Positions 44,951-64,000 of a DNA stretch of 64,000 nucleotides are shown one piece after another; within the stretch, counting starts at the first letter, position 1; the number at the start of each line of letters is the position of its first letter. This DNA is from Cliona cf. orientalis (taxonomy: Eukaryota > Porifera > Demospongiae > Clionaida > Clionaidae). Below the pieces are notes generated by a model, which worked only from the letters and a program-made list of their open reading frames with translations, did not search any database and was not told the origin of the DNA. Position numbers and translations under genes: made by a program. The stretch covers positions 4,712,001 through 4,776,000 of the forward strand of contig OZ005702.1 in NCBI GenBank assembly GCA_963930775.1, read 5' to 3'.

Positions 44951-45355
44951 AAGTAGAAAAAAAAAAAAGATTTCCTGCGCGAAAAATGTTTGGGGGAATT
45001 GGGAGCACTTGGGGAGATAATTTTTATACCGGCACGCAGAATGGGTCGAAACATGAGATTTGACATGAGAAAATTTTGATTCACGCCTTAGAATTAAAGT
45101 TACGGACCTTTGAAGTTTCCCCATATGTTTGTATAGGAAGCCATGCATTTGCAATGTTTTCCGCCCACGCGCTACGTGAGGGGCGGGGCCACGCGCGCAC
45201 ATTAACGTGACGACCATTACCCACTTTGGTAGGACAGGCTGCCTGCTTGCATTGTATGGCTCTACTATGCATCCGGCTCAATTATGTAGTGATTTTCGGA
45301 CAATTTTTTTTTCTGCTTAGTGTTCTGGTCTCCTTGTTAAACACTAAGTTACACA
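44943..45355 (+). repeat. Array repeat Y, copy 2
   Basis: Same ends as copy 1, plus CGCCCACGCGCTACGTGAGG, also found in copy 4. Confidence 0.75.
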
Positions 45356-45386
45356 CTAAGATAAAAGAATTTCCGTATGAGTAATG

Positions 45387-46028
45387 TTACAACCTAAGAT
45401 AAAAGAATATGTGAGCGTGTAATGTAATGTAATTAATGTAATGTAATGTAATGTAATGTAATGTAATGTAAATAATTCATTCGAAGCACAGGAAAAGGTA
45501 TTGTGCAATAATTTTTATATCATCATGTAGAGTGGATCAAAAATAATAATTGAATCGTCTCAGATTTTTGATTTTCACTTTCAGTTTTGAAATACGAGTC
45601 GTAGTAGTTTCTGACCACTAAAGTATGAAGGAAATGACTACTGTCCAGATGGTGCAATGGTTAAGCTCAGTGTCTGCCAAGCAGTGTCAAATGCGTGCAC
45701 TGGTTCGAATCCCACCCCGGGCCAATGTTTTTCCATCTTTTTTTCACTGCCATTGATGCTGGGAAGGCAGTCTACATACACCAAAAACATTCCATGGGCG
45801 ATGCTCCTTACGTTGGATCTAGACTGGGGGATGATTACATATACAAGCCCCAAGTCACTCTTCAGATATGTTACGCATTATAGTAATCAATGTTTGCAAC
45901 TTGAGATTTTCTGCCTCACCACATACCCGACCTATTGTAGCAGACGTGTATGATAGAAAATGGTGACATACCGTTAACTAATTACTGCTTGATAAAATTC
46001 TTTTATCTTAGGTTGTGGTTTAGCTTGT
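45387..46028 (+). repeat. Array repeat X, copy 1 (tRNA-like inside)
   Basis: Inverted ends CAACCTAAGATAAAAGAAT and ATTCTTTTATCTTAGGTTG. An (AATGT)n tract at 45420-45470. A tRNA-like stretch at 45643-45724 has an A-box-like TGGTGCAATGGTTAAG and B-box GGTTCGAATCC. A decayed fragment of another copy follows to about 46130. Confidence 0.8.
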
Positions 46029-46807
46029 AATGTAATGTAATGTAATATAAATAAATAATTCTTGGGGCCTGTGGAACGATATTATGCAATAATTTTTATA
46101 TGCAGGTGAAGAACGGAAGAAATACAGAAAATGATATGTATAAAAACTTTAAATTTCACTTTCATATCTGAGAAAACGCCGTGTTTATTGTGCCAGAGCC
46201 ATGGGGAAAGCCCCTGTTTGTACGTACGTGCATAGCGCCAGTACATTTTCGATCGCATGCCGTGACGTTTCCGCGTACGGTAACGCCCACCTAAATTGAG
46301 GTGGCACCTATATAGGAGAATGAGGTCAAGTTTGGTGGCGTGGTAGATGTGTCCCGTTGCTCATAGCGGTGAAAGAAGGAGAGAACGAAGCCTATGGAAA
46401 GGCTTGGAAGCAACATTGGGCAAGAAGAACGGTACTGATGGTCGTCAACTGAAGCGATCCTCTAGTTTGTAACGAGAAAAGCCAATGGAAGGTAAGCTAG
46501 TTTGATCATAAATCGCGAATAGGATGTGTGCATACGTGTACGAAGTAGCAACTTTAAGTATTATAAGCAGTAGTATTTATTATGATTGGTGCTCGATGAC
46601 TAGAGCGTCTAATCGAGTGCCAGGGGTGACAGCAGTGTCACAGTGAGGAATTTAATATACAGAAAGTATCAGCTCCAGTGTAAGTATGCATGGTATGAAT
46701 TATTATTGTGACGTACTAGCTAGACTAGTAATAACGTGGCTAAGTAGCTGTGATAGTTCCTTTGAGTGTGATAGGCCTCAAACCCTGGTAGAGGGAGGGC
46801 TTGGTGT

Positions 46808-47061
46808 AGCCTCGTACCCAGGCTCTTCAAAAGGAGGAGGGGAAAGGGCCTGATACACATTGTATGCGCATGCACCGGGGGATCCCAGGGTAATCGGATA
46901 CTATCGTATACTCTCCATTCATCATCCACAGAACTGTACGTCATGCAGAACCTGTGAATGATTACTATGGTAACGTGACCGGTCACTATGGAGACCACAG
47001 CATGTGTAGTGTGTACCAGGCCCTTTCTCCTCCTTCTCTTGAAGGGCCTGGGAAAGAGGCT
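46808..47061. mobile_element. Miniature element AGCCTCGTACCCAGGC
   Basis: The left end is mirrored by GCCTGGGAAAGAGGCT, with GGAGGAGGGGAAAGGGCCTG mirrored just inside. About 254 bases, no coding capacity. Confidence 0.65.
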
Positions 47062-47462
47062 AGGCTTGGTGCTGCAGATAGCACAATGGTACTACAGCAG
47101 TGGTGTGCCATCACTTCGTTTTCTGGTGTTCTATCACTGCATACACAACAGTCAGTCCATTTCCACCCCTTCTCCGTAGCAACCCTTCTATAGCAACTCC
47201 AAGACAGTGGTGGACCTCGGTAAGCTATTGATATCATGGGATGTTTCATTGATCGCTGCCCTTGCAATGCTGATGTCTTATAAAAAGTTGATGGCGACCT
47301 GGACTCCACCACTTCACATGCACTCATGTAAAACAATCTATAGCTGCCAAACTGATCCAGTTTATCGACAAACAGCATCATCACCTAGGGGTGTTTCATT
47401 GATTCTATTGGCTAGCGGTGTATGTATGTGGCATGTACACCTGTACATGTACATGTACATAT

Positions 47463-48129
47463 GTGACCGGATTTGGGAAAACCCTCCGTAAGGGATCCGC
47501 GCGCGATTCGCGCAATACGCGTTTTTAGTAGCTCAGGTAGAAATTTGTCAAAGTCCAGATTTTGTCATATACATGTCGAACAACCCTTCTTCTAACTGTT
47601 GCCGTCTTCTACGGAGGCTAGTCGTGCTATACGAAGGCGAAATAAGCCTCCATTTCGACCCACCTAGTCGGCACAACCGCCGTACACGGAGCCCGTTGCT
47701 ATGGGCGGTAATTAGAATAATCTACCTAGAGACAGCTAGATTCATCGATCTACTGTACGTTCGCTCACCTTTTTAGCTTCTTGGGCATCTAAGAACAATC
47801 GTCTGTCGTTGTCAACAACGAAATTCAACTCTTGCTCGATCTTTACGTTCATTTCGAACGGCTCCGCCCAGGTCCATTTAATTGATTTCCGGGTCACGCT
47901 AGTATGCGGAAACGCCATACGTGTGCATAGCAACGCCTTTAGACCGTAATTTCTCGATTATGGGGGGTGTGGCGCGATCGCAAACAAAGCGCTGTATCTC
48001 CACAACCAAGCGTACGATCGGCCTAATACTTGAACGCGGGTTAGCTCTATGGTAGAGCTTATCAACCATGCATCAAACTCAATTTTCTGAAAAAATTCCA
48101 TACGGAGGGTTTTCCCAAATCCGGTCACA
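47463..48129. mobile_element. Inverted-repeat element GTGACCGGATTTGGG
   Basis: GTGACCGGATTTGGGAAAAC with CCCTCCGTA at the left is mirrored exactly at the right; ACATAT/ATATGT flank it. It is CpG-rich inside. The minus ORF at 47742-47933 has no recognised domain. Confidence 0.8.
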
Positions 48130-48731
48130 TATGTAGAATAATATTATTGCGCATGTAACATATAAACATAATTTTTATGAAAAGGCATCACCTGTGTACA
48201 TGTATATACATGTACATAATGTATGTACTTCCCCTACACTTAGTACACATACATATGTACATGTATGTTCTTCAGCTTCACAATCTTTTGCTTATCCAGG
48301 TGAGCATGAGGATGTCACACCGCTGTCATCAGACCGATAGGCATGGACACTCCCAACTGGCCGCCTCTTCACTGCTGTAGGAACCCCCTTTTGATTTGTG
48401 CCAGTGACTGTCATTCCTACTACTTTCTGAAGCTGGTAAGTATGGGACTAGTATAATACACACACAATGTACCTGTCCACTTAAAGATCGTGCATGCAGC
48501 TTTTATTGTGGAATTCTTTCACAAGTTCGAGGAGGGGTTAACCAAGGTCTTCTCGCTCAATCAGTGTATTACACACATGTGCACATACATTGTAGGTACC
48601 CAGATGTACATGCACTCTCAGAGAATATGTGCCTTGGTACCCCTACAATGGGCTTTCCCTTCACATGTCGGCAAAGGAGACATGGCTCTTAAACAATGTA
48701 CAGTTCAAGCTGATTCATCTACCATAGTTAA

Positions 48732-48883
48732 TCTAATACAACGCTTGATCCAATTTAACCCAAGATATTAATTAGCACTTTATGAATTCTCATAACATTT
48801 ATATATGGATCGATTGACGACCTTTACCAGATAAACACGCATTTTTCAAAATTGAAATTATTTTTTCCATGCGTTGTATTAGA
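48732..48883. mobile_element. Small TTAA-flanked miniature element
   Basis: TCTAATACAACGC ends are perfect inverses and TTAA flanks both sides (48728-48731 and 48884-48887). The inner GAATTCTCATAAC..GACGACCTTTACC also occurs at about 61381-61425. Confidence 0.65.
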
Positions 48884-48954
48884 TTAAGTACAGTATACGG
48901 CTGTGTTGCCATTAGGGTAGTGTAAGTACAGCTCGTTACAATTCTTTTATCTTA

Positions 48955-49366
48955 GTGTGTGGTTAGCTTGTAGAAAAAAAAAAGATTTCTGCAATAAATA
49001 ATGTTTGGGGGAATTGGGAGCACTTGGGGAGATAATTTTTATACGGGCACGCAGAATGGATCGAAATACGAGATTTGATGACAGATTTTTTTGATTCACA
49101 CCTTAGAATTAAAGTTATGGCCCTTTGAAGTTTCCCCATATGCTTGTATAGGGAAGCCATGCGTTTGCAATGTTTTCCGCCCACGCGCTACGTGAAAAAC
49201 GGGGAATACCCGTGGTGTGCGTTATTTAGAAACTTTCTCAAAATTGCAGTATAGGTTGTTTGCTTGCTTTGTATGGCTCTACTGTGCATCCTAGGTGTAT
49301 TATGTGGTTTTCTGGACAATTTTTTTTCTGCTTAGTGTTCTGGTCGCCTTGTTATACACTAAGTAG
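48955..49366 (+). repeat. Array repeat Y, copy 3
   Basis: It has GATTTCTGCAATAAATAATG, GGGCACGCAGAATGG, GGGGAATACCCGTG and the TTTTTTTTCTGCTTAGTG end. Closest to copy 5. Confidence 0.75.
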
Positions 49367-49367
49367 T

Positions 49368-50022
49368 TACAACCTAAGATAAAAGAATATGTGAGCGTGT
49401 AATGTAATGTAATAAATGTAATGTAATGTAATGTAATGTAATGTAATGTAAATAATTCATTCGAAGCACAGGAAAAGGTATTGTGCAATAATTTTTATAT
49501 CAGCATATAGAGTGGATCAAAAATAATAATTGAATCGTCTCAGATTTTTGATTTTCACTTTCAGTTTTGAAATACGAGTCGTAGTAGTTTCTGACCACTA
49601 AAGTATGAAGGAAATTACTATTGTCCAGATGGTGCAATGGTTAAGCTCAGTATCTGCCAAAGAGTGTCAAATGCGTGCACTGGTTCGAATCCTACCCGGG
49701 GCCAATTTTTTTCCATCTTTTTTTTCACTGCCAGTGATGCTGGGAAGGCAGTCTACATACACCAACAACGTTCCATGGGCGATGCTCCTTATGTTGGATC
49801 TAGACTGGGGGATGATTACATAATATACAAGCCCCAAGTCACTCTCAGATATACGTTATGATATTATAGTGGGCATAGTAATCAATGTTTGCAACTTGAA
49901 ATTTTCTGCCTTACCACATATCTGACCTATTGTAGCAGACATGTATGATTGGAAATGGTGACATACCGTCAACTAATTACTGGTTAATAAAATTCTTTTA
50001 TCTTAGGTTGTGGTTTAGCTTG
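49368..50022 (+). repeat. Array repeat X, copy 2
   Basis: Complete copy with both inverted ends, (AATGT)n tract and tRNA-like stretch at 49622-49703 (B-box GGTTCGAATCC). Confidence 0.85.
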
Positions 50023-50695
50023 TTACAACCTAAGATAAAAGAATATGTGAGTGTGTAATGTAATGTAATAAATGTAATGTAATGTAATGTAATGTAATGT
50101 AATGTAAATAATGCATTCGAAGCACAGGAAAAGGTATTGTGCAATAATTTTTATATCAGCATGTAGAGTGGATCAAAAATAATAATTGAATCGTCTCAGA
50201 TTTTTGATTTTCACTTTCAGTTTTTAAATACGAGTCGTAGTAGTTTCTGACCACTAAAGCATGCAGGAAATGACTTCTATCAGATGGTGCAATGGTTAAG
50301 CTCAGTGTCTGCCAACCAGTGTCAAATGCGTGCACTGGTTCGAATCCAACCCGGGGCCAATTTTTTTCCATCTTTTTTTTTCACTGCCAGTGATGCTGGG
50401 AAGGCAGTCTACATACACAAATAACATTCCATGGGTGATGCTCCTTATGTTGGATCTAGACTGGGGGATGATTACATATACAAGCCCCAAGTCACTCTCA
50501 AATACACAGATCTCAGATGTCACGTTGTACATTAGTATTATGACGTTATAGTGGGTATAGTTTGCAAGTTGAGATTTTCTGCCTTACCACATACCTGACC
50601 TATTGTAGCAGACATATATGATAGGAACTGGTGACATACCGTTAACTAATTACTTGTTGATAAAATTCTTTTATCTTAGGTTGTGGTTTAGCTTG
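50023..50695 (+). repeat. Array repeat X, copy 3
   Basis: Directly abuts copy 2. tRNA-like stretch at about 50279-50359. Differs by small indels near its 3' part (CACAGATCTCAGATGTCACG). Confidence 0.85.
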
Positions 50696-51350
50696 TTACA
50701 ACCTAAGATAAAAGAATATGTGAGCGTGTAATGTAATGTAATTAATGTAATGTAATGTAATGTAATGTAATGTAAATAATTCATTCGAAGGACAGGAAAA
50801 GGTATTGTGCAATAATTTTTATATCAGCATGTAGAGTGGATCAAAAATAATAATTGAATCGTCTCAGATTTTTGATTTTCACTTTCAGTTTCGAAATACG
50901 AGTCGTAGTAGTTTCTGACCACTAAAGTATGAAGGAAATGACTACTGTCCAGATGGTGCAATGGTTAAGCTCAGTGTCTGCCAACCAGTGTCAAATGCGT
51001 GCACTGGTTCGAATCCTACCCGGGGCCAATTTTTTTCCATCTTTTTTTTCACTGCCAGTGATGCTAGGAAGGCAGTCTACATACACCAACAACATTCTAT
51101 GGGCAATGCTGCTTACGTTGGATCTAGACTAGGGGATGATTACGTATACAAGCCCCAAGTCACTCTCAGATATTATGTTACGCATTAGAGTATTATGACA
51201 TTATAGTAATCAATGTTTGCAACTTGAGATTTTCTACCTTACCACATACCTGACCTATTGTAGCAGACATGTATGATAGAAAATGGTGACATACCGTTAA
51301 CTAATTGCTGCTTGATAAAATTCTTTTATCTTAGGTTGTGGTTTAGCTTG
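50696..51350 (+). repeat. Array repeat X, copy 4
   Basis: Directly abuts copy 3. tRNA-like stretch at about 50947-51028. Confidence 0.85.
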
Positions 51351-51752
51351 AAAAAAAAAAGATTTATATAATTAATTAATGTTTGGGGGGTTTGGGAGCA
51401 CTTGGGGAGATAATTTTTACATGGGCACGCAGAATGGGTCGAAACTAGAGATTTGACCCTGGGGAATTTTGATTCACACCTTAGAATTAAAGTTACGGCC
51501 CTTTGAAGTTACCCCATTGTTTGTATAGGAAGCCATGCATTTGCAATGTTTTCCGCCCACGCGCTACGTGAGGGGCGGGGCCACGCGCGCACATTAACGT
51601 GACGACCATTACCCACTTTGATCAAAATTGATGTATAAGCTGCCTGCTTGCATTGTATGGCTCTACTATGCATCCAGCTCAACTATGTGGCGGTTTTCGA
51701 ACAATTTTTTTTTTCTGCTTAGTGTTCTGGTCGCCTTGAAATTAAACACTAA
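51346..51752 (+). repeat. Array repeat Y, copy 4
   Basis: Same layout as copy 2, including CGCCCACGCGCTACGTGAGG and the CTGCTTAGTG end. Confidence 0.75.
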
Positions 51753-51808
51753 GTTACAACCTAAGATAAAAGAATATGTGAGCGTGTAATGTAATGTAAT
51801 TAATGTTA
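51753..51808 (+). repeat. Array repeat X, truncated copy 5
   Basis: Only the left inverted end and the start of the (AATGT)n tract remain before the inserted element. Confidence 0.7.
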
Positions 51809-53192
51809 CACGGGCGTTTCAACGCCCAACTTAGTCTTTAATTAGAATTTACGGTACGATTGTAAATTTCAATTACACGCATAGCAACGCGAACTCATTA
51901 GCGACCTCAGTGGTTGCTATATATACTACCAGAGCCTTTTGCCATAGAAGGCAATAAAAACAGTCTTAAAATAGCAAACAAAGTCTCCTGATTCATCCAA
52001 GACCCAATGCGCAAATATAGAACGCTCTATACGGTAGTGCACATAGGTACAACGGTTGCCACCCCTGAACAAGACTTTTACAATGGTCACGTTTGACAGC
52101 CTACAGTGCATCTCCTGAAGTTTTCCTGGCTTCTGCTCCACTTCCAGCAGATAGCTGAAGGCCTAACAAATCCAGACATACCATGAGTTACTTGCTCCTA
52201 CTTTTTTTACATGTGGATATCAATGTCCAAAAATTCATGAATAATCACTAATAAATACACTGAAACAAGCTAATCTACAGATCCAGCAGCATCATGAGAC
52301 ACCAGTGGAGTTCCCTGAGGCTCAGTAAAGGTGTTGTGGAATGAAATCTTGCCTAGCCAGGCCTAATAGTCCTGCTGAGTGTGTGCAAATGTACGATGTA
52401 CTGAAATATGCAATGTCGTGACGTATTGTATACAAAATGCTTATTGCTCATGGTATGAGAGAGTAAGAGGCAAAGGTAGAAGGGAAGAAAGATGGAGAGA
52501 GAGTGGGAGTGAGGGATAGGGGGGGGATACAGAGAGAGAGTATAGGTAGGAGATGAGAGATGTACCCTTGCATGTTCACTGTATAAGCTTATATTGGCTA
52601 TTAGGCCTATACGAATACACAACCCCCACCCAAGAACTGAAATACACAGCTTTTGAATGTTGCCTGAGGCTGTTTTATCAACTAACTGGCCCTTCACAAC
52701 AGAAACTATCTTCATTCTGGGCTTACCATTCTCACAAACGGCCAGGAACCATAGTCAGAGCTTGAAATTTTCAATAATTTCCATCGCGTAAAACACCAAC
52801 TAAAAAAAGGGGGAGCAACTCATACTATGGCTTACAGGTAACTTCAGTCATAGCACAAGGCTACTCAAAAACTCACCTTGGCAGGAAAACTTCACAAGAG
52901 CCAGCATAGGCTGTCAAAGAGACCCATCACAAAAAGATTAGTGTGCGCGCGGAGCCATAACTCGATGTAGGAATGTCGTAGAAGAGTCAACCTTGGACCA
53001 CTCAACTCAGCTTGAGTTGCTCCATCTTGCCATGCTGTGAATAACCACGTGTTTTTAACGATATTCACAGCATGGCCAGTGCAAAGTGCATAGAGTGGTT
53101 GCTAGGAAGTGCATCCTGGTTGCTACGTGTAGGAAACAATTATGCGTGGGCGACTAAGTTTCCACTATACGTATTGGGCTGAAATGCCCGTG
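51809..53192. mobile_element. 1.4 kb element CACGGGCGTTTCAACGCCC
   Basis: The ends CACGGGCGTTTCA..GCCC and GGGCTGAAATGCCCGTG are imperfect inverses, with GTTA on both sides. Just inside, ACTTAGTC/GACTAAGT are mirrored; GCCAGGAAAACTTCA (minus) and GGCAGGAAAACTTCAC (plus) are also mirrored. A GA-rich tract lies at 52455-52560. No transposase recognised. Confidence 0.6.
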
Positions 53193-54217
53193 GTTACAAC
53201 CTAAGATAAAAGAATATGTGAACGTGTAATGTAATGTAATAAATGTAATGTAATGTAATGTAATGTAATGTAATGTAATGTAATGTAAATAATTCATTCG
53301 AAGCACAGGAAAAGGTATTGTGCAATAATTTTTATATCAGCATGTAGAGTGGATCAAAAATAAAAATTGAATCGTCTCAGATTTTTGATTTTCACTTTCA
53401 GTTTTGAAATACGAGTCGTAGTAGTTTCTGACCACTAAAGTATGAAGGAAATGACTACTGTCCAGATGGTGCAATGGTTAAGCTCAGTGTCTGCCAAAGA
53501 GTGTCAAATGCGTGCACTGGTTCGAATCCTACCCGGGGCCAATTTTTTTTCATCTTTTTTTTCACTGCCAGTGATGCTGGGAAGGCAGTCTACATACACC
53601 AACAACATTCCATGGGCGATGCTCCTTACGTTGGATCTAGACTGGGAGATGATTACATAATATACAAGCCCCAAGTTATGCACCTATCAATGTCAAGCCC
53701 CACTACCCCCCATAGGGGCGTGGGTGGGGGTAGGGTGGGGATTTGACACCCGAGAAGTTCAAAGTCTCCGCCCCTTGGGCCAAAATTACAGGAAAATCCC
53801 CCTATTTATCAAGATCCATGGGAGCTGTGTATTGACTTTGCCTTGCGTAATAATAAATGGTGTATTAATGTATATGTGCAATGATTGCACACTAAGCATG
53901 ATCAAATGCCCCTCCCATCCCCTATTGGGTCAAATCCCCCACCCTTTAGGCCGAAATTTGCGTCAATGGACGTTGAAATGCCCGACCCTCGCCCCTATGG
54001 GGGGTAGTGGGGCTTGACATTGATAGGCGCATTACTCTCAGATATACGTTATAATTATTATAGTGGGCATAGTAATCAATGTTTGCAACTTGAAATTTTC
54101 TGCCTTACCACATATCTGACCTATTGTAGCAGACATGCATGATTGGAAATGGTGACATACCGTTAACTAAATACTGCTTGATAAAATTATTTTATCTTAG
54201 GTTGTGGTTTAGCTTGA
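53193..54217 (+). repeat. Array repeat X, copy 6, carrying an insertion
   Basis: Complete ends and tRNA-like stretch at 53460-53541; interrupted at 53679-54031. Confidence 0.8.
53679..54031. mobile_element. Harbinger-like miniature element with TTA duplication
   Basis: TGCACCTATCAATGTCAAGC with CCCACTACCCCCCATAGGGG is mirrored exactly at the other end. TTA lies on both sides (53676-53678, 54032-54034), as for PIF/Harbinger. Other X copies show the empty site (CCAAGTCACTCTC). Confidence 0.8.
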
Positions 54218-54849
54218 TTACAACCTAAGATAAAAGAATATGTGAGTGTGTAATGTAATGTAATAAATGTAATGTAATGTAATGTAATGTAATGTAATGT
54301 AAATAATGCATTCGAAGGACAGGAAAAGGTATTGTGCAATAATTTTTATATCAGCATGTAGAGTGGATCAAAAATAATAATTGAATCGTCTCAGATTTTT
54401 GATTTTCACTTTCAGTTTTGAAATACGAGTCGTAGTAGTTTCTGACCACTAAAGCATGCAGGAAATGACTTCTATCCAGATGGTGCAATGGTTAAGCTCA
54501 GTGTCTGCCAACCAGTGTCAAATGCGTGCACTGGTTCGAATCCCACCCGGGGCCAATTTTTTTCCATCTTTTTTTTTCACTGCCAGTGATGCTGGGAAGG
54601 CAGTCTACATACACCAACAACATTCCATGGGCAATGCCCCTTACATTGGATCTAGACTAGGAGATGATTACGTATACAAGCCCCAAGTCACTCTCAGATA
54701 TGTGGTATTATGACATTATAGTAATCAACTTGAGATTTTCTGCCTTACCACATACCTGACCTATTGTAGCAGACATGTATGATAGAAAATGGTGACATAC
54801 CGTTAACTAATTACTGTTTAATAAAATTCTCTTATCTTAGGTTGTGGTT
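54218..54849 (+). repeat. Array repeat X, copy 7
   Basis: Complete copy; tRNA-like stretch at 54475-54556. Confidence 0.85.
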
Positions 54850-55247
54850 TAGCTTGTAGAAAAAAAAAAGATTTCTGCAATAAATAATGTTTGGGGGAAT
54901 TGGGAGCACTTGGGGTGATAATTTTTATACGGGCACGCAGAATGGATCGAAATACAAGATTTGATGACAGATTTTTTTGATTCACACCTTAGTTATGGCC
55001 CTTTGAAGTTTCCCCATATGTTTGTATAGGGAAGCCATGCGTTTGCAATGTTTTCCGCCCACGCGCTACGTGAAAAACGGGGAATACCCGTAGTGTGCGT
55101 TATTTAGAAAATTTCTCAAAATTGCAGTAAAGCTTGTTTGCTTGCTTTGTATGGCTCTACTGTGCATCCTAGGTGTATTATGTGGTTTTCTGGACAATTT
55201 TTTTTTCTGCTTAGTGTTCTGGTCGCCTTGAAAAAAAAAAAAAAAAA
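54850..55247 (+). repeat. Array repeat Y, copy 5, with A-run
   Basis: Ends CTGCTTAGTGTTCTGGTCGC then CTTG and about 18 A, where the second half of the TTAA element resumes. Confidence 0.75.
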
Positions 55248-55483: not shown

Positions 55484-56711
55484 CAGCGTCTCCTCTTGCT
55501 GATTCATAGCCGATTGTAATGTACTGATTGTAGAACTCGAACTCTCGGCTTGATCTTGGCCAACTTGCTGTTGTGCCATATATGGAAGTTGACGTCACGC
55601 ACGTGATAAGTTTTGTCAGGCTCCCCCTCTTTTCTCGCGTGCAGTTGAAAAGATCGGGGCGCCTGGGGACGAGGCTAGTATCCAGTACCGAATTGAGATT
55701 TGAGCCAATTCCAGGGTCGTAGCCAGGGCCCAGCCTCTTTTAACACGCGGAAAAAGAGTCTGGTGAATCCTTACGTACGTGACGTAATCTGACACGGGCA
55801 CAATGAATGTCATTATAAGCGATGGCGCAATCACTGTTTAATAATTATTATTCGCGCAGTGTTTGCACCTACCGTAGCCTATGGCGCCAGCGGGATCTTT
55901 GGACAGTGGAGTCCGAGTGCTATGCTCGTCTCGTTGCCTGATTTGTACCCAAAAGGACGGCGGTAAGCTTTCAAAAACAGGAAAAATTTTCTCCTGGTAG
56001 ACTAAGAGAGGTAAACACATTCTTGCCGGCTAAAATGTAGCTTACCACTTTCGCCTAAACTTCACAGACACTAGCATGATTCAAACGTGGGATATCTTCG
56101 ATGATCGCTTGCTGAATGTCAGTCTAGCTGTCCAACAACTACATGTCATCTCCTACAAGTAAAGTTCAAAGTACACGGTGAAGCATCGCAATCTTTTCTT
56201 GATGACGTGGCACCGTTCTGCAATCTGATTGGACGCACTGTAAAAAACGATGAGTATACGCAGCCTTATTACTGGCTTAAAACAGTATTATATCATTAGA
56301 TTAAGACTGGTTTCCGCTGGGCTTATACCTCTGTAGGTCGGTTGCTTATACGTGCGTATTCGGGCTTAAGGATATCGTTTAAGCCTTGGCCGTATAAGCG
56401 CGCTTATCCATGTGATATACATTCAACTTATTCGGTCTTATACTAGGGCGAATAACGCTCTATACCAGACGTATACTAATGCTTATACGCGCGTCGATTG
56501 CGCGCGTGCGCATAAATGCAATTACGTAATGCATCCTATGCGGCCGGCCTATGCACGTGCGGTTAGCGAGCTAGCCATGAGGAATGTATAGTGAGATAGT
56601 CACAACTCGAAAAAATACTCAGCATGCAATTAGTTTTCTTACATAGGTCTTTCCTTTTAGCGATGATGTCCAAATCATCGGACAGGTCTCCTTAACTCTA
56701 CTAGTAACGTT
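55484..56711. other. Stretch without a recognised gene
   Basis: Higher CpG than its surroundings. GCTTATAC-type words recur at 56320-56490. No domain, RNA gene or repeat boundary can be supported. Confidence 0.45.
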
Positions 56712-57591
56712 GGTTTACGATCGAAAGTTCTCTCTGACCTCAACGCTTCCCTTAATCAGGCTGACCTGACCTCGTGTTCTATCTCCATCACCACAGTGAT
56801 TGAGGCACTCTCTCATCTTAAACTGGGCAAATCTGGTGGAACAGCTCTTATTTCAAATCATTTCATCTGTGCTTCTTCTGTTCTGAGTGCCTTTTTAAGC
56901 AAGCTCTTTACAGCTATGTTGCGTCACGGGTATGTGCCTAAGAGTCTGCGTGACTGTATTCTGCAACCTATCCCAAAGCCTGGGAAAGACTCTTCTGTAT
57001 CAGACAATTACAGATCAATTGCGTTAGCACCTACCTTAAGCAAAGTATTTGAATGGTGCATTTTAATAGTTTCACGCTGCTTTTGTTACGTCTGGTCTAC
57101 AGTTCGGATTTAAGTGGGGTGTATCAACGGATCTTTGCACTGGATTAATCAAGAATGTAACTGCCAGATACTGTCACAATGGTACGCCAGTGTATGGTTG
57201 TTTTCTAGATGCAAGTAAGGCATTCGACCGTGTTGATCACTCACTCCTTTTCAAGAAATTACTTCAGAGAAACCTACCTCCCTCTGTAGTGAGAACCCTT
57301 CTCAGTTGGTACTCTGATCAGCGTGTCACTGTATCTTGGGACAAAACGATCTCTACGGATTTTTCAATCTCAAATGGTGTGCGACAGGGTGGAGTGCTGT
57401 CTCCAATTCTTTTTACAGTTTATATTGATGAGCTTCTTCAGCAGCTCAAGCAATTAGGAGTTGGATGTTTTTGGAAACATCATTTTATTGGGGCGGTCTG
57501 TTATGCAGATGACATCGCCCTTCCACTACTGGAGAAGAGAGTCTTAAAATGCCATGAAAAGTATCTTAACAATTTGTCTGGGAATGCATAG
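56712..57591 (+). pseudogene. Reverse-transcriptase fragment of a second LINE
   Basis: VIEALSHLKLGKSGG, CILQPIPKPGKDSSVSDNYR and ALAPTLSKVFEW form the front of an RT. A frameshift lies near 57065-57085. Then LQFGFKWGVSTDLCTG, CFLDASKAFDRVDH, NGVRQGGVLSPILF and VCYADDIALP follow. The similarity ends after the YADD box. It is not closely related to the LINE at 23 kb (different motif wording). Endonuclease and C-terminus are missing. Confidence 0.8.
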
Positions 57592-58090: not shown

Positions 58091-58880
58091 GAAAGTCCTA
58101 ATATTAATGAAATGTTGGCACATGTACATCTTACGTACAGTCATGATCACTAGAATTGTGTCTTTACTCCTCTCTTTTGATCTGAGGTTCGTTCTCTTTG
58201 CCAACTTTTCACTCTTTCACCAAAAGAAGTCGTCTACCTGTGAATATACAAGTACCAGAGCATCATAATTATCATGTTCAGTATATATAGACGCTAGTTA
58301 ATTTGTTATAGCTTATGGGGCTTGCTTCGCTCGCCCATTCCCTGGTTTGTTAGGTTTGTAGTGTGCACGGGAGAAAGTGAACTGATGCTCGTAGATGACT
58401 CTCATAGTACATGTTGCTTCTGAGAGCAAAGGTTATCAGCATTGCTAGCAAAGACTGGCAGAATTAACTCTCAAAATTCTGTTGTGCATGCACATTTTGA
58501 CACCCACTTGGAACACATGGCCAAATTACTAAAACCTTCCATAAGCATGCACATTTTGACATCCTGTATTCTAATTAATCAACTGGCCAAGAAACTTGTT
58601 AGTTCGTTTGCCGTCTCCCTCTCCAGACATCTGAACACAAGAAGCCAATCACGGAATCTGCTACCTCCATGACAACGACTTCACCTCATGAACCCAGCTA
58701 CCTAGCTAACTGCAGGCCGCTACATGTAAGTGTCCAGTGTTGCTTAACCTTTGAACGATCCGTTCAGTAGCTATCGTTCCCACCTGTAGCCAGTGCCACA
58801 ATTTCCGTTCACAGAGAACAACGCCGAGTTCTCACTTGAAACGCTGAGTAGCCCGAGATCCAGCATGGTGTGCCTCCATT
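58091..58880. other. Stretch without a recognised gene
   Basis: The ORF at 58442-58672 has no recognisable domain. GCATGCACATTTTGACA occurs twice (58485, 58543). Confidence 0.4.
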
Positions 58881-58884
58881 CATG

Positions 58885-59160
58885 TCCAGTGTTGCCTACA
58901 GTTGTCAGGATAAGTCTGGACAATACCTTTTGCAATGTATGTCTTAGTAAAAGTCCGGAGGATCCCATTTGATAGTGTTGCCTCAGTAATTGTCAGGATA
59001 TTAGTCCAGACAATACCTTTTGCATGGTATGTGTGTCTTATAGTAATAAAAGTCCGGAGGATCCCATTCGATAGTGTACATGTTGCCTACAATAATTGTC
59101 AGGATAAGTCCGGACAATACCTTTTAGTATATGGGTCTTAGTAATAGTCCGGAGGATCCC
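58885..59160. repeat. Minisatellite, about 90-100 base unit
   Basis: TGTTGCCT, TTGTCAGGATAAGTC, GACAATACCTTTTG and AGTCCGGAGGATCCC recur three times in this order. Confidence 0.75.
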
Positions 59161-59229
59161 TTTCAGCAGTAATAATTATTATGAGCATGCATGAGCATTT
59201 CTAGAGGATCATATACGATACCTCTTGGG

Positions 59230-59650
59230 CAAAAATGTAGCTTATGATTATCCAGAGTATTCTATAACTTGTCAGTAACAATGTCATGGACGAGTATCCG
59301 GAGGATCCTACACATCCAAGGATACATATTTAAGCATACATACCACAATGTCACGAGTATCCGGAGGATCCCAGATACATGACACTGTTCAAGTGCATGA
59401 CACATCCAAGAATACATTTTAAGCATATGTCACAAGTATCCGGAGGATCCCAGATACATGACACTGTTCAAGTGCATGACACATCCAAGGATACATTTTA
59501 AGCATAATATATACCACAATGTCACGAGTATCCGGAGGATCCCAGATACATGACATTGTTCAAGTGCATGACACATCCAAGGATACATAATATTTAAGCA
59601 TAATATATACCACAATGTCATGAGTATCCGGAGGATCCCACGTATCCTGG
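59230..59650. repeat. Minisatellite, about 63-97 base unit
   Basis: GAGTATCCGGAGGATCC begins units near 59292, 59355, 59443, 59524 and 59621, followed in full units by CAGATACATGACACTGTTCA and CATCCAAGGATACAT. The TCCGGAGGATCC core is shared with the preceding minisatellite. Confidence 0.8.
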
Positions 59651-60342
59651 GATACCTCTGCTCTGTAAGTGAATATCACTACTTGGTATAGTGACATCTG
59701 TTGCAGTAGCAAAATGTAGTGACAGTCACTACATTTTGCCACAGTAGTGACGTTCACTATTCATTCATTACAGTGACATGTAAGTGCATGGCTGTAGATA
59801 ATGATGTCATGAGTATCTGAAGTATCCTATAATAGTATGATACCTCTTCAAGCATGCCACATGAATGTCTGGATGATCCAGGCAATCCTTATTAAAATTA
59901 ATATGTAACAAGAATCATCCATAAAACATGCATGCATGTATGCATGCCAACATCTTACAGGGTCCCATGCATGCAGCACAATACTTTGTGGTCAAAAAAA
60001 ATTGTGTGTACTTAAATATTATTGTAGGTGCATGTGAGTATAAACAGTTACACACACCATGGTCGATATAGGGGATATCTGAAGTGCATGTCACCCGATT
60101 TGGAGTATCATTCATTGACAGGATAATAGTTTGTGCATGCATAGTCATACCACATGTAAAGATATATTATACTATTCACTCTCAGTTTCTCAATGTCAAG
60201 CACACTAAATTTTGTACATACATATATATGCATACAGGATAGATCAATTATATATAGCGATAATTGTGTATTAAGTCATACTGCACATGAATTAGAATGT
60301 GCCCCATTGCAGTAACTCCTATATAGATCAAAGTTTAACTAA
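59651..60342. other. Stretch without a recognised gene
   Basis: Short inverted pairs around ATGTAGTGACAGTCACTACA (about 59716-59735) and ATGCATGCATG runs. Presumed 3' flank of the KDZ-like gene. Confidence 0.4.
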
Positions 60343-62348
60343 CTACAGGTAGCCAGAGTTTTTCAGCTTACGTTCTTCCCTATGATTGTGAAGATCACAA
60401 ATATAGAGTAAATAAAATAGGAAATGCTGTCTATTCATTTTTCTTGTGATTTTAGCATATCTAGACAACCAGGCAAAAGTCTGTTCGCACACTTCTGTGT
60501 CCACCTAATATTATAAAAATAATAGTTGTTTATGATGTCATAATTATTATAATACAAGGCTAACTGTACTTGATGTGAATATCATTACACTTACTTCATT
60601 TAAGTCTGAAACCTTTCGTGAATCACATGTGTCCTTACACCATTTGTCTGTGTGGCCCGCCATATGCATTTTGTCCACCAGTATTTCAAGTGAAGCTATA
60701 ACCTTAGTGGTTGGTGTAAGATCCTTCCTCATGGGATTCTGAGCAAATTTTCTCAAATGACATCCATCGTCATAACAGATGTATTCTGTATTTATAATAT
60801 AAAATTGATGGCCATAATAGCGACATGCACATGTATAATACTATAGTAATGGATATGAAGAACATTGTGGAATTCATATTACATGTACGTGCACATTGTA
60901 GCAATTACTTAGATCAGAGAGAGAGGCTGCATTTCGTTGAATGAAATCATGTACTTCACCGTAGACTTGACTCTTTGACTCAGCCACATACAACTCGGAC
61001 AGTATTGAGATGGTGCCACATGCAGCTAGAATACCTGTATTAGAAGCACTGTTATCAATATGCAAAAAAATTGCTGATGGCTGCCCTTAACCTGCTGTAT
61101 GATGATTCAATTTCACATCCTTGTCTTTTTCAGTGTTGCACCGTAAGTTATTATCATCAGTGGACTGAGTCATTGCTCTAAATTAACATGAATAAAGATC
61201 AGTTTCATAATAATAGTATTATACCTATAATCAACTTGTTACATTATAGAAAATTAGGTCATAGTGCAACTAGAACTAATTTTACTACAAAGCACTCTCA
61301 TGCAGCTGACCAACCAATAAGGATACTGACTTGATAATCACCATTTATAATTATTGGTTGTAATACGACCCGAGAAATCATGAATTCTCATAACGTATAT
61401 GGTGCGATTGACGATCTTTACCCAAAAAGTATGTATTTTTGTATCATCCCCTCTCCCCTATTTCTATTGTGGCCCACAAAACAATGTTAATTTGTATAAT
61501 ATTATAGCATCACAATAATTAGTATGGGCTCAATATGATGCAAATTCCTCACGACTTATTAGAACCTGGTTTTGTCATATTTGTGACTATAATAATTATG
61601 TGTAGGCCTCCAAGTTTTGATAAATAATAATAGCCATAAATTCTTAACATCCTCGACATGTATACATATGCCTACTAGCTTTAGGACACAAATTGCAGAA
61701 GAATGGACAGAGATTCCTACAAGAATTAATTAGTATGAATTTACCCTGACGAGCTTGGCGTAATCCATCTATCAGTTTTGGACTTTTTCCTTGGTGGCTC
61801 ATTAGCACCAACATCCACAGATGCTGTAATTGATGTTTGTCCTCCTTGAGACACTTTGTGAACATTTACTACCGTAGATAATCCCTTCTCATACTCAGCA
61901 ATGACATCCAATGACAAACTCTTTTCGTGAACCCATGTTGCTGACACTGCCTCTTTTCCAACCCATAAAACCTATGTAATTATGCTTGAATTATATATAC
62001 TCAGCTGCTGATTAATAATATTATAGTCAATCCATACCTTGTAGTAAATAGCCTTTCTGGTGGTCCTTTTCTCTAATATCATTTCAACAACTTTATCATG
62101 AGATTCTGAACATTCAGGAGCGTCCTTATCTTCATCTCCAGTAAATGGGTTACATGCCCGCACTTTATGTAACGAGCAGTGACGGGCACCCAGTTCTGGT
62201 GAGTTCATACAACCTGTCTTGACTGCACCTGGTAGGCCTTCATATGTGGTATATCCAGCATCACGCGCCATACAAACATCACGTCTGTTTTTCATGTTTC
62301 CATCCAACACAAGTACCTTCTTACATCCAGGATACTTGCATTGGTGAC
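60343..62348 (-). CDS. KDZ-like transposase gene, C-terminal part
   Basis: Minus exons 62348-62038, 61971-61745, 61177-61092, 61034-60909, 60785-60595 and 60504-60343 join with consistent phases at GT-AG sites. Order: Cys/His cluster (CKYPGCKKVLVLDGN, TGCMNSPE, CSLHKVRAC); chromo-like segment (VLWVGKEAVSATWVHEKSL, VIAEYEKGL); basic KKSK; then the KDZ-type core GILAACGTISILSEL, CYDDGCHLRKFAQNPMRKDL, DKMHMAGHTDKWC, VDTEVCEQTFAWLSRYAKIT and the end LKNSGYL with TAG at 60343-60345. KDZ (Kyakuja-Dileera-Zisupton) proteins are DDE-type transposases. No frame break is visible, so it may be intact or domesticated. The first exon upstream of 62348 was not found. Family assignment is from remembered motifs. 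Confidence 0.65.
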
Positions 62349-62938
62349 CTATATCAATGTACTGTAATCATATCCTTCCCACGTAACGCTGAACATCCTT
62401 TCTACAGTTACTGTATATAGCTGGAAATATTGGCGAGAATTAAATATTATGGTGGTTGGGCCCAAAATCACCATTGCCTAGATATTGGTGGGTTTAAAAT
62501 TGACTGTTCGATACGGTATCAACACTATGCGAGTTAGAACTTTTAATTTGGTGATTTCCGAGGCATACTGCCAAAGCACCTTAAATTTTCCAACAATAAT
62601 AGTCTCCACTGCTTGGATGTTTATGCATTAGCCTTGCATTGACGTAGTCTTGTGCCCAGCCCCCATTCACGGATGTGATGAGAAGTGGTAGATATCTTTG
62701 CACTTTGATATGGTGGTTAATTAACACCTAAGGTGTGGATGACTCAGCTGAATTTGGTGGACATTATTATGGCAGGCCAAAAGGATGTCATAGCTGCATG
62801 GATTATAGCTACTGTAATGATCAGTAGTGCATACGTATACATCCTTATCTTCAAAGAGGATTCATAAATTGCTTCCCTTTTTAGAAACATAGCAAGAGTG
62901 TATTGTGTGTGTAATTATAGTATTTATATCATTTATAG
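62349..62938. other. Intergenic region between divergent genes
   Basis: Contains GTCTTGTGCCCAGCCCCC (about 62650), one end of the hairpin element of 1887-1946. First exons of both flanking genes may lie here but none can be supported. Confidence 0.4.
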
Positions 62939-64000
62939 GCGTGTGAGTCAATAGGCACAGCTATGAGTATGCCACCAACAGCTGTTATTAGTGGTCTCAT
63001 GATTATTGTGAGTTTTTTGCTGGCACATTCGTATGTGAACGTAGAGGGTACCCAATGGATGGAACCAGTCATTCTGTGGACGACTATCGGAATGCCTACT
63101 GGCAGTGGCAAATCCTCTCTCTTTAATTACTTCCTTGGCCTCTTACGTGAAGTACGATCGAAATGTGGCAGAAAGGACATCCACCCATCTTGGACAGTTG
63201 AGGAATCTTCATTTGAAAAGATGGGCGCACTAATGGCGAACAATGATGGCAGATTGCTTGGACTTTATGATGAATTAAGCTCCTTTCTTACACAGATTAA
63301 TCTTTATGGATCAAAAGGAATAAGTGACTCACATGACACTTCAACATTTTTAATGTTGTACAATGGTCATCCTTGGACTCGTCGAACAGGTAATTATACA
63401 TAACTGTCTGTGATGTCATGTTGCATATTTCCTTACCGTATGCATGGAAAGTTTTACCAGAAAAATAATTTTTACCAATTTCGCCATCTGCTCTCATTGA
63501 GAAAAATTTAGTTACCCCATTTTTTTGTCCTAGTTAAGTTGTATAGAGTACATGTATGTATTAACCTTTACTGCATTGGTGAAAAATTTTCCACTAAAAG
63601 TTTCTGCAATACAAAGGTAGTTGGGCATGGTGAATTTTTATGTAGTGAAATTTTTTACATGCAGATATTAAATTAACCAAAGTATGCATGCATGCAGTTA
63701 CAGGTCATGCAAACTTTCAGATGGACAATACTGCTCTAACTGTGGGTGGATTCACTCAACCGGCAGTTGCAAGGAATATCATAGAGCAACATGCAGGTGC
63801 TGAACGTGGCTTCAGCCAGCGTTTTCTTTGGTTATTCCCTAAACCTACATTCGCAAAATTTTCTAGTCTAAAACCTGTTCCTGAGGAAGTAACACAATCC
63901 ATAGGTAAATAAAATAAGTACTATAGTACTCATGATAAGGTAGGCCTATGATATCCTTGCAATACAGTGCAATCTCGACCACATTGTTCACAGGCTGATC
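62939..64000 (+). CDS. DUF3987-like P-loop ATPase gene, partial
   Basis: Exon 62939-63389 (acceptor atttatag, donor ACAG|gtaatt), exon 63698-63904 (acceptor catgcag, donor ATAG|gtaaat) and the start of an exon at 63994 (after ttcacag). They encode a hydrophobic segment (MIIVSFLLAHSYV), Walker A IGMPTGSGKSS, FEKMGALMANNDGRLLGLYD with Walker-B-like LLGLYDELSSF, then NTALTVGGFTQPAVARNI and GFSQRFLWLFPKP. These match my memory of DUF3987 proteins, predicted ATPases linked to phage and mobile-element replication. The gene continues beyond the window. It is divergent from the KDZ-like gene. Confidence 0.65.

What the first reader, a model, noticed from the sequence alone, without database searches (positions are those of the whole stretch)
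60343..64000. KDZ-like transposase head-to-head with a DUF3987-like ATPase
Two apparently intact, intron-containing genes, one DDE-transposase-like with chromo and Cys/His modules and one a P-loop ATPase of a family tied to mobile-element replication, are divergently placed about 0.6 kb apart. They could be the transposase and helper of one large, undescribed animal element, or a domesticated pair.
Basis: partly seen in the sequence, partly recalled or inferred. Interest (0 to 1): 0.7.

Follow-up and report, generated by a model that had tools for sequence, protein, structure and literature searches.

The report
Two-gene jumping element with ATPase helper
The two genes lie inside one recently mobile DNA transposon that pairs a KDZ-type transposase with an ATPase of a family best known from bacterial mobile elements, a pairing repeated in many related elements of the same genome.

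Summary
Both genes lie in one DNA transposon, window coordinates 58877-67505 (8,629 bp, running past the window end), with imperfect terminal inverted repeats, inverted subterminal repeats and an 8-bp target duplication. A second, inverted copy 8.3 kb away differs at one base and has its own duplication; a longer third copy (11,615 bp) lies on another contig. Spliced, gene A passes Pfam KDZ (40.1 bits) and has a chromodomain; gene B is DUF3987 (E 3e-35). The pairing recurs: 20 of 33 DUF3987 loci have an A gene or its CxC5 domain within 10 kb, each head-to-head. A and B diverge together (r 0.92); families whose A proteins are 26-30% identical to this one share the end pattern 5'-CA...CTC-3' and 8-bp duplications. 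One claim fails: the window genes are not intact. They lack 2,648 bp that in the longer copy encode the N-terminal part of the transposase, so they are deletion derivatives, presumably moved in trans. The ATPase's role is inferred: a transposition helper working like IstB/TnsC/MuB. Ten library papers mention DUF3987; by title none concerns a eukaryotic transposon.

The parts
58877..64000 (.). Left part of the transposon; the whole element is window coordinates 58877 to 67505 (8,629 bp) and continues past the window end
   Evidence: inverted copy at 75814-84442 with one mismatch; matched target duplications
58869..58876 (+). 8-bp target site duplication TGTGCCTC (partner at 67506-67513, outside the window)
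58877..58901 (+). A-side terminus CATTCATGTCCAGTGTTGCCTACAG; imperfect terminal inverted repeat (B-side end read inward: GAGTGATGTCCAGTGCTGCCTACAC)
   Evidence: the core has 20 genome matches with up to 1 mismatch, the reversed control 0
58955..59638 (+). Left subterminal repeats: 8 copies of CCGGAGGATCC in one orientation; 12 copies of the reverse complement near the other end (66449-67054)
60343..62348 (-). Gene A: C-terminal part of a KDZ transposase with inserted Cys/His cluster and chromodomain; exons about 62348-62038, 61971-61745, 61177-61092, 61034-60909, 60785-60595, 60504-60343
   Evidence: KDZ 40.1 bits; chromodomain 28.4 bits on the 60-residue piece; exon limits read by eye
62690..62700 (.). 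Junction of an internal deletion: 2,648 bp present in the longer copy L033, holding an open frame that aligns with the CxC5 part of related transposases, are absent here
62940..64000 (+). Gene B: DUF3987 P-loop ATPase; exons 62940-63389 and 63704-63904 in the window, four more to about 65981 outside. Walker A GMPTGSGKS at 63089
   Evidence: DUF3987 E 3.4e-35

Best explanation
The window holds a KDZ-superfamily DNA transposon of a lineage that carries two divergently transcribed genes: a transposase (CxC5 cluster, KDZ core and, in this clade, a chromodomain) and a DUF3987 P-loop ATPase. Shown: element limits, target duplications, recent movement, recurrent head-to-head pairing, joint diversification, constraint on both genes. 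Inferred: the transposase binds the shared terminal core and the inverted subterminal repeats and inserts the element with 8-bp staggered joining; the ATPase assembles on DNA and licenses or remodels the transposase-target complex, a part played in bacteria by IstB, TnsC and MuB; the chromodomain biases the target. The window copies, which lack the N-terminal part of the transposase, are non-autonomous and are presumably moved by longer relatives.
For: Element: two copies of 8,629 bp with one mismatch, different flanks, each with a perfect 8-bp duplication; a longer copy with the same ends and its own duplication. Recurrence: 15 of 37 CxC5 loci have DUF3987 within 10 kb, all 15 head-to-head, against a random mean of 0.37 and a maximum of 4 in 5,000 trials; 14 of 20 fetched DUF3987 loci have gene A by tblastn, all 14 head-to-head. 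Ends: five more elements with perfect 8-bp duplications among 12 loci scanned, the A-side end starting CA and the B-side end GAG in each. Co-inheritance: Mantel r 0.92, p 5e-5, 13 loci. Constraint: L022/L023 nonsynonymous distance 0.13-0.17 in both genes with saturated synonymous distance. Mobilisation: core 14-mer 137 genome hits against 0 for the reversed control; in the 100 listed, neighbours within 8 kb form 28 inward-facing, 0 outward-facing and 3 same-strand pairs, 25 of the 28 being 90-2,464 bp apart. Family: KDZ above cut-off in the window's own spliced A and in L037 and L024; CxC5 above cut-off in six relatives. Matched duplications at both window copies indicate simple insertion, not an intramolecular replicative inversion (established transposition logic).
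Against: No biochemical or expression data. Only 3 of 41 KDZ loci in this genome lie near DUF3987, so the ATPase marks one lineage and is not needed by KDZ transposases in general. 22 of 37 CxC5 loci had no DUF3987 match within 10 kb. Three of 20 fetched DUF3987 loci (L028, L030, L032) had no A gene found, and L034 and L036 have another partner. The P-loop departs from consensus in the other clade (KKGEKKT, NKGQKKT or HKGQKKS). Four close-pair dN/dS values were 0.13, 0.64, 0.29 and 0.42, not uniformly low.
Confidence: 0.72

Rival explanations
1. The ATPase is a helicase that replicates or unwinds the element, for instance in copy-out transposition or gap filling, rather than a transposase regulator.
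For: DUF3987 domains replace known helicase domains in primase fusions of prokaryotic mobile elements and are predicted helicases (PMC5862659, passages read); PHROG 2373 'DNA helicase' matches L025 B at 1.7e-14 and L029 B at 1.2e-5, though not the window's first exon alone; the one viral-contig relative, L044, has open frames that look to me like a single-strand binding protein and a tyrosine recombinase (no family search).
Against: I noticed no primase or polymerase among the open frames listed (no dedicated search). Copies show simple insertions with matched duplications, which does not exclude copy-out but gives no sign of replicative rearrangement.
Confidence: 0.35
2. The ATPase is passenger cargo (regulation, defence or host manipulation) not involved in transposition.
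For: KDZ elements carry accessory genes in other hosts, such as TET/JBP dioxygenases in fungi (PMC12730594, two sections and passages read); most KDZ loci here lack DUF3987.
Against: The same head-to-head arrangement across families as little as 22% identical in A, and correlated divergence; the same ATPase family beside a different putative transposase in L034 and L036.
Confidence: 0.15
3. A domesticated host gene pair.
For: Open exons with splice sites.
Against: A second copy with one mismatch and its own target duplication, and a truncated transposase.
Confidence: 0.02
4. An assembly artefact: the inverted copy is a misassembled palindrome.
For: Very high identity (one mismatch in 8,629) and 8.3 kb spacing.
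Against: Different flanks, different perfect target duplications, and a third copy on contig C1 with the same ends.
Confidence: 0.02

Closest known systems
KDZ (Kyakuja-Dileera-Zisupton) DNA transposons
   Same: KDZ transposase domain and CxC5 cluster; 8-bp target duplications, as stated for Zisupton and for the Dileera element Zisupton-1_PGr (PMC12730594); 5'-CA start, as in fungal Kyakuja
   Different: A second gene for a DUF3987 ATPase; the B-side end reads CTC rather than TG; fungal Kyakuja as described there has 7-bp duplications and no inverted repeats; a chromodomain inside the transposase in this clade
IS21 (IstA/IstB), Tn7 (TnsB/TnsC) and phage Mu (MuA/MuB)
   Same: A transposase beside a dedicated ATPase (PMC11208146, abstract and passages read)
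   Different: The transposase is KDZ and the ATPase is DUF3987; no homology between the ATPases was shown; introns in the window clade
DUF3987 helicase-like ATPases of phages, satellites and primase fusions
   Same: Same Pfam family; Walker A, Walker B and a shared arginine in the alignment with the phage-like L044
   Different: Partner is a transposase, divergently transcribed; no primase noticed

Membership tests
KDZ transposon superfamily | KDZ transposase domain (Pfam PF18758) above cut-off | tested here: met
   Spliced window A 40.1 bits against 26.6; L037 42.6 and L024 33.6; L025 20.6 and L029 19.1 fall below it
KDZ transposon superfamily | KDZ-associated cysteine cluster | tested here: met
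   CxC5 above cut-off in relatives L025, L029, L026, L038, L039, L022; L035 below it at 22.7 of 26.9. Not met in the window copies themselves: that part is deleted, and the L033 frame had no Pfam match though it aligns with the relatives
KDZ transposon superfamily | 8-bp target site duplication | tested here: met
   Eight elements with perfect 8-bp duplications; none found in 7 of the 12 loci scanned, of which four have genes close to a locus end
KDZ transposon superfamily | Terminal inverted repeats | tested here: met
   Core shared by both ends; three of the first five bases differ between the ends
KDZ transposon superfamily | Three catalytic acidic residues | tested here: inconclusive
   Conserved LDGN, YDxxC and NTExxEQ motifs; their assignment as the triad is my recall
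DUF3987 (PF13148) | Domain above cut-off with P-loop motifs | tested here: met
   122.4 bits; Walker A GMPTGSGKS and LGLYDE motif
IstB/TnsC/MuB-type transposition regulators | AAA+ ATPase that activates the cognate transposase | not testable with these tools
   Needs biochemistry; no PDB sequence relative of B was found at E up to 1

The most novel reading that the evidence does not exclude
DUF3987 ATPases are the dedicated ATP-dependent partners of at least two separate eukaryotic DDE transposon lineages in this genome: the KDZ lineage described here and the L034/L036 lineage with another putative transposase and an OTU-like domain. They would be the eukaryotic counterpart of the transposase-plus-ATPase systems of bacteria, recruited from prokaryotic replication helicases.
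Probability: 0.45. Interest if true: 0.85.

Novelty: new variant of a known kind. Interest (0 to 1): 0.74.

Why it matters
Eukaryotic DNA transposons are generally described with a transposase as the only enzyme needed for movement (general knowledge, not tested here). A lineage that keeps a dedicated ATPase beside its transposase through deep divergence would make ATP-controlled transposition testable in eukaryotes, bears on how target choice and self-avoidance evolve, and gives a role to eukaryotic DUF3987 genes, a family that Pfam lists as of unknown function.

Tried and rejected
Rejected: domesticated pair and assembly artefact (see rivals). The second gap between the window copy and L033 (about 485 bp) was not called a deletion, because the frames read from that part of L033 show short repeated motifs and it may be an insertion there.

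Led nowhere: PDB searches with the alignments of A and B, no match at E up to 1. NCBIfam gave nothing useful. A viral-contig scan with one A protein found nothing; the genome-contig scan with the B alignment confirmed no relative among 92 pattern matches; the viral-contig scan with it gave one phage-like contig, L044, in which I found no gene A. The reciprocal genome search with an A protein, and a Wnt search meant to check that the host is an animal, did not complete.

Results against me in the end scan: the best-scoring pair in L022 was another inverted repeat (AATTACCGCCCATAGCAACGGGCTCC, flanked by AGAATTCT) that also appears in the mixed-locus controls, so it is some other element. I took a lower-ranked pair because it carries the shared core. 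The L024 pair scored 11 of 16, a level that several unrelated pairs also reach; I accept it for the shared core and the CA/GAG rule. L027 was found only with a scan that presupposed CA and GA starts. For L025, L026, L029, L035, L038, L039 and L040 no ends were accepted, and L041 was not scanned. The 132 mixed-locus controls gave 12 pairs at 12 or more of 16; those I saw are AT-rich, palindromic or the other element, and none has the shared core. One search found the core at both ends of L022, L023 and L037, but its pattern was drawn from them. In the Mantel test L040 and the window were dropped as near duplicates of L039 and L033.

Full report
WHAT IS THERE. The window is contig C14:4712001-4776000 of a 217-Mb genome in 149 contigs. 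I fetched 30 kb from window coordinate 59001 onward, most of it beyond the window end, and compared the region with itself. A stretch from window coordinate 58877 to 67505 (8,629 bp) matches an inverted copy at 75814-84442 with one mismatch. Outside those limits the flanks differ. Copy 1 is flanked by TGTGCCTC on both sides, copy 2 by TCTCTAGG on both sides. These are two independent insertions of one element, and both genes of the finding lie inside it.

ENDS. The A-side end reads CATTCATGTCCAGTGTTGCCTACAG and the B-side end, read inward, GAGTGATGTCCAGTGCTGCCTACAC. Inside them, 8 copies of CCGGAGGATCC lie near the left end and 12 copies of its reverse complement near the right, none in the opposite sense. 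The core ATGTCCAGTGYTGCCTACA with up to one mismatch occurs 20 times in the genome and the reversed control 0 times. Among those 20 are the ends of a third element, C1:19237313-19248927 (11,615 bp, duplication TCCTTTTT), an inward-facing pair 12.4 kb apart that encloses the DUF3987 hit at C1:11581595, and two inward-facing pairs about 3.0 kb apart.

GENES. Gene A runs in six exons on the minus strand from about 62348 to a stop ending at 60343. Its spliced product (368 residues read) matches KDZ at 40.1 bits and Chromo at 23.7 bits as a whole (cut-off 25.1), 28.4 bits when the 60-residue piece is scanned alone. Gene B (461 residues read, six exons, to about 65981) matches DUF3987 at E 3.4e-35. 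Exon joins rest on splice signals and homology, not on transcripts.

NOT INTACT. Aligned with the longer copy, the window copies lack 2,648 bp at window 62695. In L033 that stretch holds a 222-residue open frame that aligns with the CxC5 part of the transposase in 13 relatives, though alone it had no Pfam match. So both window copies encode only the C-terminal part. Since they share the deletion and each has its own target duplication, the deleted form moved after the deletion arose, presumably by help from a longer relative.

THE PAIRING RECURS. PF13148 gives 49 matches in the genome, which I clustered into 33 loci. By tblastn with window A, 14 of the 20 hold an A gene, all 14 head-to-head. 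Independently, the CxC5 family gives 37 loci; 15 have DUF3987 within 10 kb, all 15 head-to-head; random placement gave a mean of 0.37 and at most 4 in 5,000 trials (lengths of contigs other than C1, C4, C6, C8 and C14 were set to 9.5 Mb). Together 20 of 33 DUF3987 loci are paired with A: 14 by tblastn, four more by CxC5 alone (three unfetched, and L031, where the match lies beyond the fetched stretch), and both window copies. Of the other 13, two (L034, L036) sit beside a different putative transposase, three (L028, L030, L032) had no A gene found, and eight were not fetched. In the other direction only 3 of 41 KDZ loci found with the KDZ model are near DUF3987, and the eight small KDZ loci fetched (L001-L008, about 3.3 kb each) match neither of my A profiles. 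So the ATPase marks one KDZ lineage. The genome searches are by exon and give lower bounds.

SHARED ENDS ACROSS FAMILIES. A scan for 8-bp duplications with inverted repeats outside the genes found L022 926-6596 (CGTACACG), L023 2079-8751 (GATCTGAG), L024 878-7644 (TTAATCTC), L037 2075-9414 (TGACAGCG) and L027 1264-9690 (CAGCTGGG). In these five the A-side end begins CA and the B-side end GAG, followed by a core near GGTGCARTATTGGC; the window element follows the same rule with TCCAGTGTTGCC. Their A proteins are 26-30% identical to that of L033 over the stretches compared. Ends were accepted in 5 of the 12 loci scanned; caveats are under Tried and rejected. The 14-mer GGTGCARTATTGGC has 137 genome matches and 0 in the reversed control. 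Of the 100 listed, neighbours within 8 kb form 28 inward-facing pairs, none outward-facing and three on one strand; strand shuffling gave a mean of 7.8 inward pairs and reached 28 in 0 of 2,000 trials. Three of the pairs are L022, L023 and L037; 25 are 90-2,464 bp apart, the size of non-autonomous derivatives.

CO-INHERITANCE AND CONSTRAINT. Pairwise identities of A and B over 13 loci correlate at r 0.92 (Mantel p 5e-5), also within each clade (0.65, p 0.03, five loci; 0.86, p 0.0005, eight loci). Between L022 and L023 both genes show nonsynonymous distances of 0.13-0.17 with saturated synonymous distance. Close pairs give dN/dS 0.13 and 0.64 (A, two frames, L039/L040), 0.29 (B, L039/L040) and 0.42 (B, L026/L028); B of L033/L035 gives 0.15. 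In the other 10 of 18 comparisons synonymous distance was also saturated.

MECHANISM. Shown: movement, ends, 8-bp duplications, pairing. Each window copy has matched duplications on both sides, as simple insertion gives; an intramolecular replicative inversion would have split them between the two copies. Inferred: the transposase binds the core and the subterminal repeats. For the ATPase I favour a regulator that assembles on DNA and activates the transposase, as IstB does for IstA; [quoted passage not shown] The main rival is a helicase role: DUF3987 is predicted to be a helicase of mobile-element replication (PMC5862659, passages) and PHROGs labels its relative so.

WHAT IS KNOWN. KDZ elements are known for accessory genes: TET/JBP in fungi (PMC12730594, introduction, one results section and passages read). 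[quoted passage not shown] The Pristionchus Zisupton paper has no occurrence of 'ATPase' in its main text (PMC9297572, passages). DUF3987 occurs in 10 papers of the library (titles and abstract starts seen; passages of two read); by title all ten concern bacteria, archaea, phages or their mobile elements. Other searches for this question. The founding papers on Zisupton (Bohne 2012) and KDZ (Iyer 2014) were not read; the latter is not held. Repbase could not be searched, so a consensus of this kind may exist there.

VERDICT. A real, recently mobile, two-gene KDZ transposon lineage with a DUF3987 ATPase partner; a new variant of a known kind. The window copies are deletion derivatives of it.

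Noticed in passing
L034 135-9303; L036 1251-9610: DUF3987 head-to-head with a different putative transposase (weak DUF6729 match in L034, none in L036) and an OTU-like domain; ends GGCTSATGGCACAT with perfect 8-bp duplications GTTAATTG and CCGACTAC. In one search other duplication lengths also gave matches inside these long inverted repeats. A possible second lineage with the same ATPase family.
   Followed up: partly
L025 5168-5875, L024 4398-5102, L027 4313-4968, L029 592-1632: A third conserved gene of about 235 residues in four families (weakly in L037), with no match where tested in Pfam (L025, L029), NCBIfam (L025) or PHROGs (L025, L024); position and strand relative to A and B vary.
   Followed up: partly
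contig C1 (37.5 Mb of 217 Mb): 25 of 33 DUF3987 loci and 26 of 37 CxC5 loci lie on contig C1, far above its share of the genome; KDZ loci do so less (15 of 41).
   Followed up: no
gene B of L024, L025, L028, L029, L037: P-loop reads KKGEKKT, NKGQKKT or HKGQKKS instead of the usual GxxxxGK[ST], with the lysine kept; the window clade has the usual form.
   Followed up: no
window 44959-55233: Series of direct repeats of about 0.4-1.4 kb at 85-96% identity.
   Followed up: no
window 57070-57588: Reverse transcriptase fragment (RVT_1, E 1e-20) just left of the element.
   Followed up: no
window 56589-56688 and 69906-70005: 100 bp repeated inverted at 99% identity, one copy on each side of the element.
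   Followed up: no
L031 4889-7150: Open frames that look to me like a SWIM-type transposase lie between DUF3987 and a CxC5 match 6.9 kb away, perhaps an element nested in a two-gene element.
   Followed up: no
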